In this document: one piece after another, positions 8,519 to 19,235 of the stretch
How positions within the stretch are numbered: the first letter of the stretch is position 1
Layout of the letters: every line of letters starts with the position of its first letter
Assembly: GCF_014218335.1 (NCBI RefSeq)
Contig: NZ_AP023367.1
Coordinates: 3,777,501-3,841,500, forward strand
Origin: Anaerocolumna cellulosilytica
GTDB taxonomy: Bacteria; Bacillota; Clostridia; Lachnospirales; Lachnospiraceae
Direction of reading: 5' to 3'
Length of the DNA stretch: 64,000 nucleotides
Translations under genes and position numbers: made by a program
Notes under the pieces: generated by a model
Databases searched by the model: none
Told to the model about the DNA's origin: nothing
The model's input: the letters and a program-made list of their open reading frames with translations, nothing else

Positions 8519-9187
8519 TTACAAGCCTCTTTCGCTAATGTTCTTAATTGTATTCATAATATGTTCATGAGCCAGATTTTCTGCTCTTTCTCCGTCTCTT
8601 TGACGAATTGCATCTAATATGGCTGTATGCTCTTTGTTAGAGTTTGCCGCCCTAAGATCTGATGCTAGAGTAATTTTTCTGATTCTCTGCACATAGTGAT
8701 GAAAATCTGATAATACATGATTTAGTATTTTACTGCTGGAGGCTTCATATATTAACTGATGAAATTTGTTATCTAATTCTACGATTTGTTCGTGGTGCTC
8801 TTTCTTTGCATGAAATTCAGATAAGTATACGACTTCTTCTAATTCGTCAATCTGTTCCTGGGTAATATGTTCACAAGCCCATCTTGCACACAGCCCTTCC
8901 AGATAAGAACGGATTATATATATATCGTGAATATCCTTTTCTGAGATTCCGTTCACATACGCCCCTTTATTGGGTATTATGTTAACCAATCCTTCTAATT
9001 CCAACTGTCGCAGTGCTTCTCTGACCGGAGTTCGGCTTACTCCCAACTCTGCTCCAATTGTGGTTTCTTTCAGTTCTTCATTCTGGCTATAAACACCGGA
9101 CAAAATATCTTCACGGATTTTTTTAAAAACACGTCCACGAAGAGAATATTTGTCGGTAACTTCCTTATGAACATCTTTATCGTTCAC
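8519..9187 (-). CDS. GntR family regulator, FCD subfamily
   Basis: 222 residues. The N-terminal winged helix contains LGVSRTPVREALRQLELEGL, and the C-terminal all-helical FCD ligand domain contains the metal-binding pattern with DNKFHQLIY and EHTAILDAI. The GTG start follows AGGAGGG by 6 bases. It is the last gene of a Re-citrate synthase-IDH operon, 11 bases after IDH. The 12-bp palindrome over the operon promoter (11888-11899) is a likely site for it, suggesting autoregulation in response to a citrate-branch metabolite (inferred). Confidence 0.9.
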   Translation of the reverse strand: MNDKDVHKEVTDKYSLRGRVFKKIREDILSGVYSQNEELKETTIGAELGVSRTPVREALRQLELEGLVNIIPNKGAYVNGISEKDIHDIYIIRSYLEGLCARWACEHITQEQIDELEEVVYLSEFHAKKEHHEQIVELDNKFHQLIYEASSSKILNHVLSDFHHYVQRIRKITLASDLRAANSNKEHTAILDAIRQRDGERAENLAHEHIMNTIKNISERGL

Positions 9188-9198
9188 AAAATGCCCTC

Positions 9199-10359
9199 CT
9201 ATAGTTTCTCAATGGTCTCCATCAAATAGTCTGCGAATTCAGCACTGGTTGCACCGGTATTCCTTCCGGTAATTACTAATTTTCTTTCTGTTACTGTACA
9301 GATATCCAGTGCCTTATATAATTGGTCTGCTTCTGCGGTATATCCAATATGAGCTAACAGCATAGCACCAGCACGAATAACACTGCAAGGGTCTGCATAA
9401 ATGTCTCTTCCTTCATCCACCATTCTAGGTGCTGAACCGTGAATTGCTTCAAACATAGAATATCTCTTACCAATATTCGCACTGCCTGCTGTTCCTACAC
9501 CACCTTGGAATTCTGCTGCTTCATCTGTAAGAATGTCTCCATATAGATTCGGTAATACCAGTACCTGGAATTCTTTTCTTCGTTTTTCATCCACCAGTTT
9601 TGCAGTCATAATATCAATGTACCAGTCATCTGCTGTAATGTCCGGGTATTCTTTTGCAATTTCATTGAATATCTCTAAGAACTTACCGTCTGTTGTCTTA
9701 ATAATATTTGCCTTTGTTACTGCTGTAACCCTTGTCTTATTATTTGCTTTTGCATATTCAAAAGCCGCGCGGATAATTCTTTCGGTTCCCTGGGTAGTTA
9801 CTACTGTAAAGTCAACCCCTAAATCAGAAGTTACATGAAACCCCTTGCTGCCTACTGCATATGCTCCTTCTGTATTCTCACGGTAAAACGTCCAATCAAT
9901 ACCCTGTTCCGGTATCCTGACAGGTCTTACATTCGCAAATAAGTCCAGTTCTTTACGCATAGCAACATTGGCACTTTCCACATTAGGCCAAGGGTCACCT
10001 TTTCTTGGAGTTGTAGTTGGCCCTTTTAAGATTACATGACATTCTTTTAGTTCCTTTAAAACTTCCGCCGGAATTGCTGCCTGTTCCGCTGCCCTGCGCT
10101 CAATGGTAAGACCCTCAATATTCTTAAATTCTACCTTGCCGGATTCAACATCCTTTTTCAGCAGATACTTCAGAACACGACTGGCCTGGGATGTAATGGC
10201 CGGTCCGATTCCATCACCGCCGCAAACACCTATAATAAGTTTGTCTAAATCTTTATAGTTTAGAAAATCACCCTGCTGCTTCATGACTTCTACTCGTTTT
10301 AACTGTTCCTCAAGTAATTTGCCAAATTGATCTTTTGCTGCTTGAATAAAATCTGTCAT
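9199..10359 (-). CDS. Isocitrate dehydrogenase, isocitrate/isopropylmalate family
   Basis: Oxidative decarboxylation of isocitrate to 2-oxoglutarate, probably NAD-dependent. Seen: GGDGIGPAITSQA, KGPTTTPRKGD, the substrate segment NVAMRKELDLFANVRPVR, RENTEGAY, TKANIIKTTDG, LPNLYGDILTDEAAE and the cofactor loop FEAIHGSAPRM. Isopropylmalate dehydrogenase is the alternative, but the neighbouring Re-citrate synthase-like gene and absence of leuCD support IDH. Two ATGs lie in tandem; the second fits the GGAGG spacing better. About 35 bases separate it from the upstream gene. Confidence 0.85.
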   Translation of the reverse strand: MTDFIQAAKDQFGKLLEEQLKRVEVMKQQGDFLNYKDLDKLIIGVCGGDGIGPAITSQASRVLKYLLKKDVESGKVEFKNIEGLTIERRAAEQAAIPAEVLKELKECHVILKGPTTTPRKGDPWPNVESANVAMRKELDLFANVRPVRIPEQGIDWTFYRENTEGAYAVGSKGFHVTSDLGVDFTVVTTQGTERIIRAAFEYAKANNKTRVTAVTKANIIKTTDGKFLEIFNEIAKEYPDITADDWYIDIMTAKLVDEKRRKEFQVLVLPNLYGDILTDEAAEFQGGVGTAGSANIGKRYSMFEAIHGSAPRMVDEGRDIYADPCSVIRAGAMLLAHIGYTAEADQLYKALDICTVTERKLVITGRNTGATSAEFADYLMETIEKL

Positions 10360-10393
10360 CATTATCCTCCATTTATTTTTTAATAGTGAAATT

Positions 10394-11791
10394 TTATATT
10401 ACCGTGTCTTCTTTTGATAACCCAGCTTTAACCTTATCAATTACTGCTATTAATTCATCGTCAGTGATAACAGTTACTCGTCCGCTTTCATATTCTTCAT
10501 CCACCCATTCTTTTATCTTAATAACCACGGGGTCATTCTTGTCTACGGCATTGGCACCCTTTAATTTGAAATATGTATTTATCCAATGGGCGATACCTGC
10601 CAGACCAGAAGTATTGGACACAGAAACTAAAACTGGCCTGTTTAAAAATTTCTCTGTATCAAATATATTATAAATCTCTTCATTTTTCAATAGCCCATCC
10701 GCATGTATTCCTGCACGGGTTACATTAAAGTTCTTACCTACAAAGGGCGTGCGGGGTGGAATTTTATACCCTATTTCCTTGGTAAAGTATTCTGCAAGCT
10801 CTGTAATCACTGTTGTATCCATCCCATCCAGTGTCCCTTTTAGCTGGGCATATTCAAATACCATTGCCTCAAGAGGAGTATTACCAGTTCTCTCTCCAAT
10901 ACCGAATAAAGAACAGTTTACACCGCAGGCACCATAAAGCCAGGCAGTAGTGGAATTAGTGACCGCCTTATAGAAATCATTGTGTCCATGCCACTCAATT
11001 AGTGCAGAAGGTACGCCACCGTGGGTTAACAGCCCGTATATAATACCTTGTACGGATCTTGGAATAACCGCACCTGAGAAATTAACTCCATACCCCATGG
11101 TGTCACAGGCTCTTATCTTAACAGGAATTCTATATTCCTCACCTAGTTTCATTAATTCCATGCAAAATGGAATGACAAAGCCATGGATATCGGAGCGGGT
11201 TATGTCCTCAAAATGGCAGCGGGGAGCTATGCCGGTTTCCAGACATTCTCTTACAACACTTAAATAGTGATTTAAGGCTTCTCTTCTTGTCATCTTCATT
11301 TTATAAAAGATATGGTAGTCAGAACAACTGACCAAAATACCGGTTTCCTTCATACCAATTTCTTTTACCAATTCAAAATCTTTTTTGCTGGCGCGTATCC
11401 AAGAGGTTACCTCAGGAAATTCATAACCTCTTTCCATACACTTATACACAGCATCTCTGTCTTTCTTGCTGTATAAAAAGAATTCGCTTTGCCTGATAAT
11501 ACCTTTTGGTCCTCCCAGGCGATGCAGATAATCATAAATAGTTACAATTTGATCTGTTGTGTAAGGAGCCCTGGATTGCTGCCCATCACGGAATGTAGTG
11601 TCTGTAATCCATATCTCTTCTGGAAAATTATGAGGTACAATTCTATCATTAAATGCAATCTTTGGCACCTCATCATAGGGAAATAAATTCCGAAATACAT
11701 TCGGGTGTGATACATCAACCAGAGGGTATAAATGCTCTTCTAACTGAAGCAGATTATTCTGGCGATTCATAAATACTTTCCTGTTTTCCAT
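10394..11791 (-). CDS. Re-type citrate synthase (homocitrate/isopropylmalate synthase superfamily)
   Basis: DRE-TIM aldolase-type enzyme condensing acetyl-CoA with a 2-oxoacid. The first strand reads WITDTTFRDGQQSRAPYTT, with metal-binding residues also in EWHGHNDFYKA. Length is 465. The TTFRDGQQ form, the RQSEFFLY segment and the IDH partner resemble the Clostridium kluyveri Re-citrate synthase rather than LeuA, so citrate is the likely product; homocitrate is the main alternative. Start ATG is placed after AAGGAG; an upstream TTG gives 7 more residues. It is the first gene of the operon. No aconitase lies in the window. Confidence 0.8.
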   Translation of the reverse strand: MENRKVFMNRQNNLLQLEEHLYPLVDVSHPNVFRNLFPYDEVPKIAFNDRIVPHNFPEEIWITDTTFRDGQQSRAPYTTDQIVTIYDYLHRLGGPKGIIRQSEFFLYSKKDRDAVYKCMERGYEFPEVTSWIRASKKDFELVKEIGMKETGILVSCSDYHIFYKMKMTRREALNHYLSVVRECLETGIAPRCHFEDITRSDIHGFVIPFCMELMKLGEEYRIPVKIRACDTMGYGVNFSGAVIPRSVQGIIYGLLTHGGVPSALIEWHGHNDFYKAVTNSTTAWLYGACGVNCSLFGIGERTGNTPLEAMVFEYAQLKGTLDGMDTTVITELAEYFTKEIGYKIPPRTPFVGKNFNVTRAGIHADGLLKNEEIYNIFDTEKFLNRPVLVSVSNTSGLAGIAHWINTYFKLKGANAVDKNDPVVIKIKEWVDEEYESGRVTVITDDELIAVIDKVKAGLSKEDTVI

Positions 11792-11887
11792 AATTAGCTT
11801 CTCCTTACCCAATTTTTTTACATATGTAGGCGTATAGGAATTATCCCGTTATCCTGTTTCTATGTATTTTTATCTTCATACTGTTTC

Positions 11888-12220: not shown

Positions 12221-12264
12221 ATATATGATTAAAAATATACTAATTTAAAAGCGAGGTTTTGATT

Positions 12265-13215
12265 ATGTCAAAAAAGAAACTTGTAGTTGCTTTAGGAAGA
12301 AATTCTTTTGGAGATACTTTTCCTGAGCAGCAAAAAGCAGTAAAAATAGCAGCAAAGTCCATTGCCGATTTAATAGAGGCTGATTATGAAGTAGTTATTA
12401 CTCACAGCAATGGACCTCAGGTTGGAATGTTTCATACAGCCATGACAGAATTCAGCCGTCTTGATTCTAAGTATACCGTAGCACCTATGTCCGTATGCAG
12501 TGCTCTAAGCCAGGGATATATAGGGTATGATTTGCAGAACATTCTTCGCACGGAACTGCTAAACCGTGGGATATTTAAACCTGTATCAACCATTATTACC
12601 CAGGTTAAGGTTGATCCCTTTGATAAGGCTTTTAGCAATCCTACAAAAATAATTGGCAGATATATGTCCGAAGAAGAAGCTGATTTGGAAAAGAAAAAAG
12701 GGAATTATGTTGTCTTTGAAGAAGGTAAAGGCTACCGCCGTATTATTGCATCACCTAAACCAAAGGAAATCTATGAAATTGATGCCATTCAGGCTCTTAT
12801 TGCAGCAAATCAGATTGTTATTGCAGCCGGTGGCGGCGGTATTCCTGTTCTGGAACAAGGAACAATCTTAAAAGGTGCCAGTGCCGTTATTGAAAAGGAT
12901 GACACCAGTGAATTGTTAGCAGAGCTTGTTGATGCAGAGGTTTTGTTGTTCTTAACGGGAGTAGAAAAAGTTTCTTTAAACTATGGCAAAGAAGAGGAAC
13001 AGCCACTTGACACTCTAAATTCCAAAGAGGTTCAGGATTTATTAGAAACAGGGGTTTTTGAAGCTGGTTCCATTCTACCAAAAGTAGAAGCCTCCCTCAA
13101 ATTTGTAACATCAACCTTAAATAACAGTACAACTGACAGAAGAGCTATTATTACACATGTGGATCAAGCTCTTAACGCAGTTCATGGTAAGACCGGCACA
13201 CATATAATAAAATAA
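12265..13215 (+). CDS. arcC: Carbamate kinase
   Basis: Carbamoyl phosphate plus ADP to ATP and carbamate, the last energy-yielding step of arginine, agmatine or ureide fermentation. Amino acid kinase fold: N-terminal KKLVVALGRNSFG (usually GGNA in the family), VVITHSNGPQVG, IASPKPKEIYE, VIAAGGGGIPV, VIEKDDTSELLA and GSILPKVEA. 316 residues from an ATG with GAGG 8 bases upstream; a TTG two codons earlier is possible. No arcA, arcB or transporter is adjacent, so it is a solitary gene here. Confidence 0.93.
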   Translation: MSKKKLVVALGRNSFGDTFPEQQKAVKIAAKSIADLIEADYEVVITHSNGPQVGMFHTAMTEFSRLDSKYTVAPMSVCSALSQGYIGYDLQNILRTELLNRGIFKPVSTIITQVKVDPFDKAFSNPTKIIGRYMSEEEADLEKKKGNYVVFEEGKGYRRIIASPKPKEIYEIDAIQALIAANQIVIAAGGGGIPVLEQGTILKGASAVIEKDDTSELLAELVDAEVLLFLTGVEKVSLNYGKEEEQPLDTLNSKEVQDLLETGVFEAGSILPKVEASLKFVTSTLNNSTTDRRAIITHVDQALNAVHGKTGTHIIK

Positions 13216-13220
13216 TCAGT

Positions 13221-13265
13221 AAAACCCGAAGAAGACACTTGCTTAATCTGTCTTCTTCGGGTTTT
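13221..13265. terminator. Terminator of arcC
   Basis: AAAACCCGAAGAAGA (13221-13235) pairs perfectly with 13251-13265, ending in a T-run, 6 bases after the arcC stop. No further gene is seen up to 13442. Confidence 0.9.
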
Positions 13266-13442
13266 CTTATTTGTCAACGAATACAAATCTAATTAAATAC
13301 TACCTAAGATTATTATGTCCTGATATACAAATATCAAAATCTAGTTCTTGATATTATTTATTGTATTATTGTAAATATCTTTCTCACAATAAATAAACTT
13401 CCCTATTTTTTATTTTTTTAATTCGCATTACATCATGTTTCC

Positions 13443-15236
13443 TTATACTGCATAGTTGCTTAAATCTTCCTGGAAGTTTTTAATCATAGAATCAAATACT
13501 GTTATCTGGTGGGTTAATTCCTTTATCTGTTCTACGTATACTGTTACATTAGAATTTGCTTCCTCTGTCATGGCTGAATTTTCCTCTGCGATAGAGGCTA
13601 AATTCTGAATTCCGTCAAAAAGTTCAGAAATATTGTCTGCTTCAAGCTTTAAGTCCTGTGAATTTTGAATCATCAAGTCAGATACCACCTTAAGTCTCTG
13701 ATTCATCTGATTAGAACTATTAACTGCCTCGCTTAGTTTTGTATTTTCATTTTCAAGTACATTATACTGTACATCAATACCTTCCACTACTTCGTTAATA
13801 CTGCCGACAAAACCGGTGAGACTTTCATTAATCTGACTTACCGCCTGATTGGTTTCTTCTGAAAGCTTTCTTACCTCTTCTGCTACTACCGTAAAACCTT
13901 TTCCGGCTTCGCCTGCTCTGGCTGCTTCTATGGAAGCATTTAACGCTAATAAATTAATCTGCTTTGCAATGGACGCTACAATTAATACAATTTGTGTAAT
14001 ATCATCAGCGTTGTTCTTAAGTTCATTGCTGCTGTGACGGATTTCATTAAATCGATGCAACACATCCGTAATCTGGCCAGCCGTTGCCTGCACATTCTGA
14101 AAGCTGTCTTCAATACCAATAACCGCTTCCTCAATCTGGCTTTTATTCTTCTGTCCATCGTTTGAAATACTAGTAACATTTTGGATACTACTGTCTAATA
14201 CCGTAATTGCCTTACCTGTATCTTCTGCCTGGGTTATAGCCGCTTCAGCCACCTGATCAAGGACATTGGTAATATCATTAGATGTACTTTGCATCGTATG
14301 AGCAATGTCTGATACAGAATGATTAAAGATATACATTTCATCTACTATCGCATTAAAACCAATAAAATCTTTTTGAACATTCTTCTTGATTTTGTTAATT
14401 TCATCCATGAGGTCTTCGTATTCATCTTTTGATTTCAATACAACGGACTCCACAAAGTTACGCTTTTCTAACTTTTCCAATTCCATCATAATCAGCTGTT
14501 TGGGACGATGTATCAACACAGAGGAAGCTAAGGAAATCAAAAAAGCTCCACCTGTCAATACTAAGGTTTTCATTAAACCAAGAGATAGCAAGAAAGATAG
14601 TATTGCAAGCATAACCGTATTAACTACTGCTGTTTTCATTGCAGTAGTCTTAATAAAACCAAGCGATAACAGCTGATTCAGCCTATACTTCTTCGTAAAT
14701 TGTATTTCTTTTTCAAAGGTCAGCTTTAACTGGGTTTCTCCTTCCTGTTTGCTTAAAACTTCCACTTGAATCTCTTCTTTAAAATACCTGGCTACTCCGC
14801 TGATTAAACCTGTAAGATAGTCAATCATGCCTCTTTGGGAGCGGTATGTAAAAATAATATCATGGGACGAAATCGGAGTTACATCTAAGAGCGGAGGCTT
14901 GGCTCCCTGAAAACGTTTCATAACAATAATGTGAACATCATTCATAGACTTTAAAAACTGATATGCTGTCTCATGGCGGAAAAATCCCGGATAGTTGTTA
15001 CTGAACGTTTTTATATTTTCTTCCCCCATAACATTCCATATGTCTTTGTGACTTTTTCCAACTGCTTCTCCTATTTTATTGATTACACCGCAAGCTACGG
15101 AATCTTCTACATCTTCCAGGGGGGTGAATATGTGGTCACCAGATACTCCGAATGACTCTAGGGCATTCGTCACAACAGAAACGCCAAATAATCTCCTGCA
15201 AGATTCCACCCAAGTTGATACTACTGTTCCTTTCAT
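13443..15236 (-). CDS. Methyl-accepting chemotaxis protein with N-terminal H-NOX haem sensor
   Basis: 597 residues. Residues 1-185 are an H-NOX (HNOB) domain starting [18 protein letters not shown]. It has the proximal haem ligand His102, Pro115 and the haem-propionate motif Tyr131-Ser133-Arg135. Two hydrophobic segments (about 203-245) anchor it in the membrane. The C-terminal half is an MCP signalling domain with the conserved hairpin [20 protein letters not shown]. It should sense a diatomic gas in the cytoplasm and signal to CheA/CheW. The distal residues Trp9, Asn74 and Tyr140, numbered as in the Thermoanaerobacter (Caldanaerobacter) O2-binding H-NOX, are all present, so O2 binding is predicted. 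GGAG precedes the ATG. No che genes are nearby. Confidence 0.93.
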
Positions 15237-17540: not shown

Positions 17541-19235
17541 TTAAAAATTAAAAAATTGTATTTGTTCGTTTAAGCTCACAGCGCTTTCCCTGTTACCTTG
17601 TGCTTGGCGCAGTACATCGCTTGTTTTAGCAGCAATGGAGGTAGCTTTTTCTGCAATGTCAGAAGCTCCGGTAGCTCCTTCATTGGTAGCTATGGTTACT
17701 TCATCAATAGCCGTTTTAATGTATACTATGGATTCTTGTAGCTTATAAGCAGAGTTTTTAATTTCTGCCACCATTTCATCAAATTCACTGGCATCCCTAT
17801 AATATTGCTCTCCGGTAGTTACCATGGTTTTATAATCTGCAATTACTTTGTCATCTACAAATTCCAGAAGGTTTACAGAATCCTCCACCAATTCTTCCAC
17901 TGCATTAGCAACTTCGGTTGTTATATCTTCAATTTTTGATACTGCTGCTTTTGAATTCTCTGCAAGAAGCCGAATTTCATTGGCTACGACTGCAAAACCT
18001 TTACCAGCTTCTCCTGCTCTGGCAGATTCTATGGATGCATTTAAAGCTAATAAATTTGTCTGGGCTGTAATCGCTAATATGGTTTTTGACAAAGACCTGA
18101 TTTCCTCTATAGCACTTGTTCTTTCAATAGAACGTCTTAACTGGTTATTGGCTTCTTCATAGATACCAACAGCATTTTTCTGAGATTCCAAGGCTGCTGC
18201 TTTCAGCTTGTCTGCTCTTTCTTTAATTTCCACTGCTAGTTGTAAGCCATTGTTGGATTTATCAGCTACTACTCCAACTTCTTTCTCAACCTCCTGAGCA
18301 GTATACCCGATTTCCTGGGTAGATGCTGCGGTTTCTTCCATGCTTGCTGACAATTCCTCTGTGGTTGCTGATATATTTTCAATATCACTGTACACATCTT
18401 TTGCACTGCCTTCTAAGATACCTGTTGAATCCTGTATATTCTGGCTTTCTGTACGTATTGTTTCCATGGTTCGGGCTATCTGTTTTTGCATTTGGAAGAA
18501 GGAACGGGTTATATCTCCCACTTCATCTTTTCTCTTGGCAAATTTTTCTTTGAGTGCAATAGTTAAGTCACCTTGCTCCATCTTTAGCATATTATTTTTA
18601 ATCTGGTTAAAACCATGTGCTATACTATTTCCTAACAGGTAAGAGAGCAGGACACCAATTACTAGAACTGCCAGCAGAATTACAATAATCCAGGTTAAAT
18701 ATTCTGCTATCTTCGCCTCTAGTTCATAGTTGTAAATACCCACAAACCACATACCAATTGCTGTTCCGCTGCCATCAACTATGGGCATATAATATGCATC
18801 TGCCTTTTTTCCCGCAACCATGGCACTTCCAATATAGTCTGAATTGGATAAAAGCACGGTTTCTATTACATCCTCCGATGCCTGTGTACCAGTCTGGCGG
18901 TTTCCATTATCATCAATTACCGTCGTTGATACTCTTGTATCTCCTGCAAATAAGGTGGCTTGGATACCTGTATTCCCTGTAAATTGGTCAACTATATCAT
19001 AATTACCATTAATTAATGTATCTCCTTTATATAGATTCTCTCCTTCTATTCTCCATTCTCCGGGATAGTTGGCATCTAACAAAGCTAGTCCTAGTTCAGA
19101 GTAATTCCCAAGTTGTTCAAGGGTTTCATCATCCACCAGTTTTGTGATTATCCGGTGAAAGGAAATACTTGTCAGTAAAATAAAACCGGTCAAAGCCAGG
19201 ATAACTGCTGAAACAATCTTCCATTTAATCTTCAT
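17541..19235 (-). CDS. Methyl-accepting chemotaxis protein, single-Cache sensor
   Basis: 564 residues. A transmembrane helix (about 7-27) is followed by an extracellular single-Cache-type domain (about 30-178) with ESEL-like [11 protein letters not shown] and the late [19 protein letters not shown] strand. Then come a second helix (about 181-203), HAMP (about 204-258) and the MCP domain with the tip [20 protein letters not shown]. The extracellular ligand cannot be named; small carboxylates are common for this fold. The gene is monocistronic with no chemotaxis genes adjacent. Confidence 0.92.

What the first reader, a model, noticed from the sequence alone, without database searches (positions are those of the whole stretch)
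13443..15236. H-NOX chemoreceptor of an anaerobe keeps the full oxygen-binding pocket
The H-NOX domain has His102, the Y-x-S-x-R motif at 131-135, and Trp9, Asn74 and Tyr140 at the same numbers as the Thermoanaerobacter (Caldanaerobacter) O2-binding H-NOX. In that protein the three distal residues stabilise bound O2; NO-only H-NOX lack Tyr140. The residues are read from the sequence; oxygen binding is inferred. It predicts an oxygen-avoidance receptor directly wired to chemotaxis.
Basis: partly seen in the sequence, partly recalled or inferred. Interest (0 to 1): 0.7.

Follow-up and report, generated by a model that had tools for sequence, protein, structure and literature searches.

The report
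Typical oxygen-binding H-NOX chemoreceptor
The window encodes an ordinary member of a known family of haem-based gas-sensing chemotaxis receptors of anaerobic bacteria, with the oxygen-binding pocket intact as in its sampled relatives; the one less expected point is that its host shows no recognised enzyme for making the haem the receptor needs.

Summary
An intact 597-residue ORF (13443-15236, minus strand) is an N-terminal H-NOX domain, a membrane hairpin and an MCP signalling domain. Trp9, Asn74, His102, Tyr131/Ser133/Arg135 and Tyr140 align without gaps with the Thermoanaerobacter/Caldanaerobacter O2-binding H-NOX. It is not surprising: all 157 H-NOX-MCP proteins I read carry the whole set, and Trp9, Asn74 and Tyr140 are among only 14 of 185 invariant positions. 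Eight stand-alone H-NOX proteins of the same phylum lack Tyr140 and Asn74 (Trp9 too in the seven that cover it) and branch apart. Published papers, a review among them, already state the rule: strict-anaerobe H-NOX have distal Tyr, bind O2, are fused to MCPs and probably serve O2 chemotaxis. So this is a new member of a known kind. O2 binding is likely; affinity and behavioural sign are unknown (two proteins with the same nearest residues differ about 1,200-fold in O2 affinity). Less expected: the host genome (Anaerocolumna, inferred) shows neither ferrochelatase nor AhbD/NirJ2-type haem synthase, but has an IsdE-type haem-import cluster. The receptor may depend on scavenged haem. This is inferred, untested.

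The parts
13443..15236 (-). H-NOX-MCP chemoreceptor gene, 597 aa, intact
   Evidence: translation; Pfam HNOB and MCPsignal
14682..15236 (-). H-NOX haem domain, residues 1-185
   Evidence: Pfam HNOB 2-160; phmmer to 1xbn/1u4h, residues 1-173
15210..15212 (-). Trp9 codon (distal H-bond triad)
15015..15017 (-). Asn74 codon (distal H-bond triad)
14931..14933 (-). His102 codon (proximal haem ligand)
14832..14846 (-). Y-x-S-x-R motif, residues 131-135
14817..14819 (-). Tyr140 codon (distal H-bond donor to O2)
14508..14630 (-). two-helix membrane hairpin, about residues 203-243, with almost nothing between the helices
   Evidence: hydropathy maxima at 204-222 and 224-242
13671..14045 (-). MCP signalling domain, residues 398-522; tip motif [12 protein letters not shown] from residue 437
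   Evidence: Pfam PF00015
15245..15250 (-). Shine-Dalgarno-like AAGGAG, 8 nt before ATG
   Evidence: read directly
13218..13267 (-). 19-pair hairpin between the stop codons of this gene and the convergent carbamate kinase gene; probable terminator for both (inferred)
   Evidence: fold -27.2 kcal/mol, z -7.4; the pattern scan found no terminator there, its loop limit being 3-8 and this loop 11

Best explanation
A membrane-anchored chemoreceptor whose cytoplasmic N-terminal H-NOX domain holds ferrous haem b on His102, with the propionates gripped by Y-x-S-x-R. Diatomic gas enters the cell and binds the distal face; Tyr140, positioned by Trp9 and Asn74, hydrogen-bonds O2. Binding moves the haem and the two subdomains (hinge Gly71), which changes the membrane hairpin and MCP coiled coil and hence CheA activity, steering the cell, most likely away from O2. 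Shown: sequence, pocket residues, architecture, family-wide invariance, CheA genes. Inferred: haem loading, O2 binding, signal direction, behaviour. Because the genome shows neither ferrochelatase nor an AhbD/NirJ2-type enzyme but has a haem-import cluster, the haem is probably scavenged (inferred).
For: Gap-free match to the Tt/Cs O2-binding H-NOX with all pocket residues. 157 of 157 full-length MCP-fused loci (the own locus included) have W9/N74/H102/Y131/S133/R135/Y140; 78 of 78 in the HMM-found subset, which is free of motif bias. 8 of 8 stand-alone H-NOX lack Y140 and N74, and 7 of 7 that cover residue 9 lack W9; they split off at 100/100 support. Hydropathy hairpin; MCP domain. Three CheA-type hits in the host. 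No cytochrome bd in 15 of 15 genus genomes. Literature: distal Tyr requisite for O2 binding, MCP fusion (passages). IsdE, FecCD, ATPase, flavodoxin and ChuW/HutW-like cluster in the host.
Against: O2 affinity varies about 1,200-fold between proteins with the same nearest residues. The Ct domain also binds NO and CO. The host has no detected haem synthase, so the protein could be partly apo. No neighbouring gene points to O2: the flanks are asparagine synthase and carbamate kinase.
Confidence: 0.72

Rival explanations
1. It is mainly a nitric oxide receptor: O2 can bind, but NO binds far more tightly and is the physiological signal.
For: The Ct/Tt domain binds NO, CO and O2 (PMC9814294 passage). 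Weak O2 binding of the C. botulinum relative is in PMC7356049; its femtomolar NO affinity is recalled, not read.
Against: Strict invariance of W9, N74 and Y140 in every MCP fusion read, and their absence in stand-alone relatives, is hard to explain if only NO matters, since NO-binding H-NOX lack the distal Tyr.
Confidence: 0.2
2. The domain works as a haem or redox sensor, or is often apo, and reports haem status rather than gas.
For: No ferrochelatase in any of 15 genus genomes, host included; the host's best match to the AhbD model is 102 bits, where NirJ1- and NirJ2-type proteins score 217 and 360; a haem import and degradation cluster is present. A haem-free H-NOX with redox function is described for V. 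cholerae (abstract start in the search listing).
Against: The residues that act on bound gas stay invariant, which haem sensing alone would not need. A same-genus genome, G006, does have a NirJ1/NirJ2-like pair. The IsdE link is not significant class-wide: 6 of 37 against 2 of 43, p 0.14.
Confidence: 0.08

Closest known systems
Tt/Ct/Cs H-NOX (Thermoanaerobacter tengcongensis, now Caldanaerobacter subterraneus), PDB 1xbn, 1u4h
   Same: Gap-free alignment to residue 160 and all pocket residues; MCP fusion and strict anaerobe (literature passages)
   Different: 67 of 160 residues identical; I5 to V, V70 to M, F141 to L; haem synthase genes not found in this host, not checked in the Tt host
Clostridium botulinum H-NOX (Cb)
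   Same: H-NOX of an obligate anaerobe with distal Tyr that binds O2 (passages)
   Different: Not aligned here; much weaker O2 affinity is reported
H-NOX-MCP of Anaerocolumna and other Lachnospiraceae (for example L054-L060, L065, L068, L075)
   Same: Same pocket; 597 aa in all 13 genus proteins; 80% domain identity to the nearest, L054
   Different: Nothing of note; orthologues
Stand-alone NO-type H-NOX (L167-L174 here; Alr2278, PDB 2o09, as a characterised case, its nature recalled)
   Same: H-NOX family; His102 in 8 of 8 and YxSxR in 7 of 8 of L167-L174
   Different: No MCP, no Tyr140 or Asn74, and no Trp9 where that position is covered

Membership tests
H-NOX (PF07700) | Score over the curated cut-off; His102 and Y-x-S-x-R | tested here: met
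   149.8 bits against 25.5; residues
O2-binding, MCP-linked H-NOX subfamily | Distal Tyr140 with Trp9 and Asn74 | tested here: met
O2-binding, MCP-linked H-NOX subfamily | Fusion to a membrane MCP | tested here: met
O2-binding, MCP-linked H-NOX subfamily | Falls with MCP-linked, not stand-alone, H-NOX in a tree | tested here: met
   100/100 branch; 44 of the 157 MCP-fused loci plus Tt, against 8 stand-alone rows; midpoint root for drawing only; the program warned of long branches meeting
O2-binding, MCP-linked H-NOX subfamily | Stable ferrous-O2 complex | not testable with these tools
   needs purified protein
O2-binding, MCP-linked H-NOX subfamily | Host is a strict anaerobe | tested here: inconclusive
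   no cytochrome bd in 15 of 15 genus genomes; haem-copper oxidase not searched; anaerobic growth of Anaerocolumna is recalled
NO-only stand-alone H-NOX | No Tyr at 140, no MCP | tested here: not met
   Tyr140 and MCP fusion
Methyl-accepting chemotaxis protein | MCPsignal domain with conserved tip; CheA in the genome | tested here: met
Methyl-accepting chemotaxis protein | HAMP domain (common, not universal; recalled) | tested here: not met
   no HAMP match in Pfam at E 0.001; not defining, so membership stands

The most novel reading that the evidence does not exclude
The receptor sits in a cell that cannot make haem, so it becomes an oxygen sensor only when haem has been scavenged: a chemoreceptor whose sensitivity is set by external haem, possibly common among H-NOX-MCP bacteria (31 of 37 H-NOX-positive genomes of the class sample show neither ferrochelatase nor an AhbD/NirJ2-type enzyme).
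Probability: 0.2. Interest if true: 0.5.

Novelty: new member of a known kind. Interest (0 to 1): 0.2.

Why it matters
As a family member it adds little: the rule is in print. It sharpens two points. In the proteins read from this phylum the pocket is invariant in MCP fusions and absent in stand-alone relatives, so domain architecture predicts it cleanly. And most H-NOX carriers in the class sample show no recognised end enzyme of haem synthesis, which raises the testable question of where an anaerobe's O2 receptor gets its haem.

Tried and rejected
Plus-strand reading: stops throughout the frame translated. The finding as an exception: rejected, the pocket is the default state. A conserved partner: asparagine synthase (divergent) and carbamate kinase (convergent) flank the gene in 9 and 8 of 80 named loci. 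Some loci are too short to show both. Promoter scan: 14 hits against 9.4 expected (sd 3.0), not informative. The Cb H-NOX primary paper PMC8344375 was not held.

Haem-synthase statistics: AhbD-model matches at E 1e-90 are in 6 of 37 H-NOX carriers and 2 of 356 others (p 1e-5); 5 of 36 and 3 of 357 if G287, whose H-NOX is a fragment with a stop, is moved (p 2e-4); 6 of 37 and 6 of 356 at E 1e-60 (p 3e-4). Genomes are related, so these p-values are not independent evidence. The curated cut-off (500 bits) is not reached by any of 393 class genomes and is the wrong yardstick here: a check scan of one such locus (L175) names the pair NirJ1 and NirJ2, over those models' own cut-offs; that these serve haem b synthesis in clostridia is my assumption. 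In one search at most 5 candidates per genome were scored; all 24 of the host were. The 9 class ferrochelatase matches are weak (20-47 bits, 7 over the cut-off), unlike the 3 strong ones (329-352 bits), and may not be real. Searches used the same settings and list the same family members, but most genomes without a match are not printed, so identity of the samples is inferred.

Limits of the survey: of 38 matches, 8 were not read (G336, G213, G168, G158, G145, two G243 pieces, G287); of 40, G567, two G524 pieces and G652 (below cut-off) were not read. The 80 named loci were found with a pattern that contains Trp9, and only the best 80 of 188 were kept, so Trp9 is biased there; the HMM-found set is not. 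Some genomes occur in both collections: 140 distinct domains among 157.

Mended on checking: the statement that no genus member has an AhbD-like gene was too wide. G006 has a NirJ1-like gene (664 bits, over its cut-off) and a NirJ2-like gene lying in two reading frames.

Full report
WHAT IS THERE. The ORF lies on the minus strand of 13443-15236, 597 aa, with AAGGAG 8 nt before the ATG and a strong hairpin at 13218-13267 between its stop and that of the convergent carbamate kinase gene (12259-13215). Pfam finds HNOB (2-160) and MCPsignal (398-522) above their cut-offs and no HAMP. Hydropathy gives two adjacent helices near 204-222 and 224-242 with almost nothing between them, so the H-NOX domain is most simply cytoplasmic (inference).

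THE POCKET. The best solved-structure matches are the Tt/Cs H-NOX entries, E about 7e-39, without a gap to residue 160.

HOW UNUSUAL IS IT. The genome is of the genus Anaerocolumna (inferred: same-genus contigs have exactly the lengths of named Anaerocolumna records, for example 6,817,888, 5,500,435 and 217,307 bases). H-NOX is in 13 of 15 genus genomes, the two misses being 63% and 78% complete, and in 1 of 45 other same-family genomes of that sample, though named loci show it in further Lachnospiraceae genera such as Kineothrix, Mobilitalea and Lachnotalea. In the class it is in 37 of 393 genomes, in the phylum sample in 39 of 398 at E 0.001, 38 over the cut-off. I read 161 H-NOX loci, the own one included. 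All 157 that run on into the MCP part (400 aa or more) carry the complete residue set; 10 of them missed a strict tip motif but proved to be MCPs on reading (9 with a variant tip, L081 cut off at the tip). Of the other 4, two are cut short (L024, L092) and two are stand-alone proteins (L155, L159). In the unbiased HMM-found set it is 78 of 78 full-length proteins, out of 81 loci. Trp9, Asn74 and Tyr140 are among 14 of 185 positions identical in all 157 proteins, 140 distinct domains. The eight stand-alone H-NOX proteins I read (two of them L155 and L159 again, as L173 and L174) have I, F or L at 140, W or F at 74, and L or I at 9 in the seven that cover it; the eighth has an in-frame stop upstream. 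One also departs from YxSxR. In a tree of 53 rows (44 of the 157, Tt, and the eight) the two architectures separate with 100/100 support, with a long-branch warning. So the full pocket is what this class of protein has; finding it here is expected.

WHAT IS IN PRINT. PMC8738867, a review (passages): H-NOX from obligate anaerobes form stable oxy complexes, have the requisite distal Tyr, are membrane bound, fused to MCPs and are likely O2 sensors for chemotaxis. PMC12329717 (passages) says the same and names Y140. PMC9814294 (passages) names O2 avoidance or metabolic adaptation as the expected use but says the function is not yet demonstrated.

HOW IT PROBABLY WORKS. O2 (also NO or CO) binds ferrous haem; the haem and subdomains shift about the glycine hinge; the signal passes the membrane hairpin into the MCP coiled coil and CheA. 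The host has three CheA-type hits and no cytochrome bd is found in 15 genus genomes. Repellent response is inferred from lifestyle only.

THE HAEM PROBLEM. No ferrochelatase match in the host or its 14 genus relatives; 3 of 98 genomes in that sample have one, all strong. For the sirohaem route I used the AhbD model. The host's best of 24 scored candidates is 102 bits. For scale, in locus L175 of a class genome the adjacent NirJ1- and NirJ2-type proteins score 225 and 364 bits with that model and pass their own models' cut-offs, so either would have stood out in the host. One same-genus genome of 15, G006, does have a NirJ1-like gene and a NirJ2-like gene spread over two reading frames, so the genus is not uniform. 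In the class sample ferrochelatase matches 9 of 393 genomes, all weakly and none among the 37 H-NOX carriers; AhbD/NirJ2-type matches at E 1e-90 are in 6 of 37 carriers and 2 of 356 others. So carriers have the route more often than others, yet 31 of 37 show neither enzyme. The host has one locus (L180, genome 308.9-313.3 kb) with an IsdE haem-binding lipoprotein over its cut-off (313 bits), a FecCD permease, an ABC ATPase, a flavodoxin, and a radical-SAM protein whose best match is ChuW/HutW but below its cut-off (255 of 400 bits). That fits haem import and anaerobic haem breakdown. IsdE is over the cut-off in only 2 of 15 genus genomes (the other, G007, 78% complete, had no H-NOX match), and at E 1e-60 it is in 6 of 37 carriers against 2 of 43 others, not significant. 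Other importers were not tested. My searches showed no paper on haem supply for H-NOX-MCP receptors in such anaerobes: one search listed 12 of 87 papers, all 5, open-licence papers only; one review was checked by passages.

VERDICT. Correct observation, standard interpretation, ordinary finding; new member of a known kind. The haem-supply question is the part worth following.

Noticed in passing
L180:8870-13346 (own genome C1 about 308.9-313.3 kb): Haem import and degradation cluster: IsdE, FecCD permease, ABC ATPase, flavodoxin (best match BilS, below cut-off), ChuW/HutW-like radical SAM protein (below cut-off), in a genome without a detected haem synthase.
   Followed up: partly
L164:422-2637 (genome G006, same genus): NirJ1-like gene over its cut-off beside a NirJ2-like gene that lies in two reading frames; a haem-synthesis pair that the window's own genome does not show.
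   Followed up: partly
L167-L174: Stand-alone H-NOX proteins in the same phylum without Tyr140 or Asn74; the seven neighbouring ORFs scanned in L174, L167 and L172 are not histidine kinases or c-di-GMP enzymes.
   Followed up: partly
L172:4275-5006: Stand-alone H-NOX with a weak V4R-like tail (E 8e-4, below cut-off), beside a hydrogenase maturation protease gene.
   Followed up: no
window 8519-11812: Minus-strand run of a GntR-type regulator, an isocitrate dehydrogenase-like gene and an isopropylmalate/homocitrate synthase-like gene, the last 88-94% identical in 9 of 80 named loci; such proteins in clostridia include Re-citrate synthase (recalled).
   Followed up: no
window 17541-19235, minus strand: A second MCP gene close to the H-NOX receptor; a 57-62% identical match lies within 4 kb in three named Anaerocolumna loci (L055, L058, L082).
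   Followed up: no
L010, L021 and other loci: Position 144, L in the window protein, is M in 21 and V in 1 of 161 loci; such natural variants may tune gas access.
   Followed up: no
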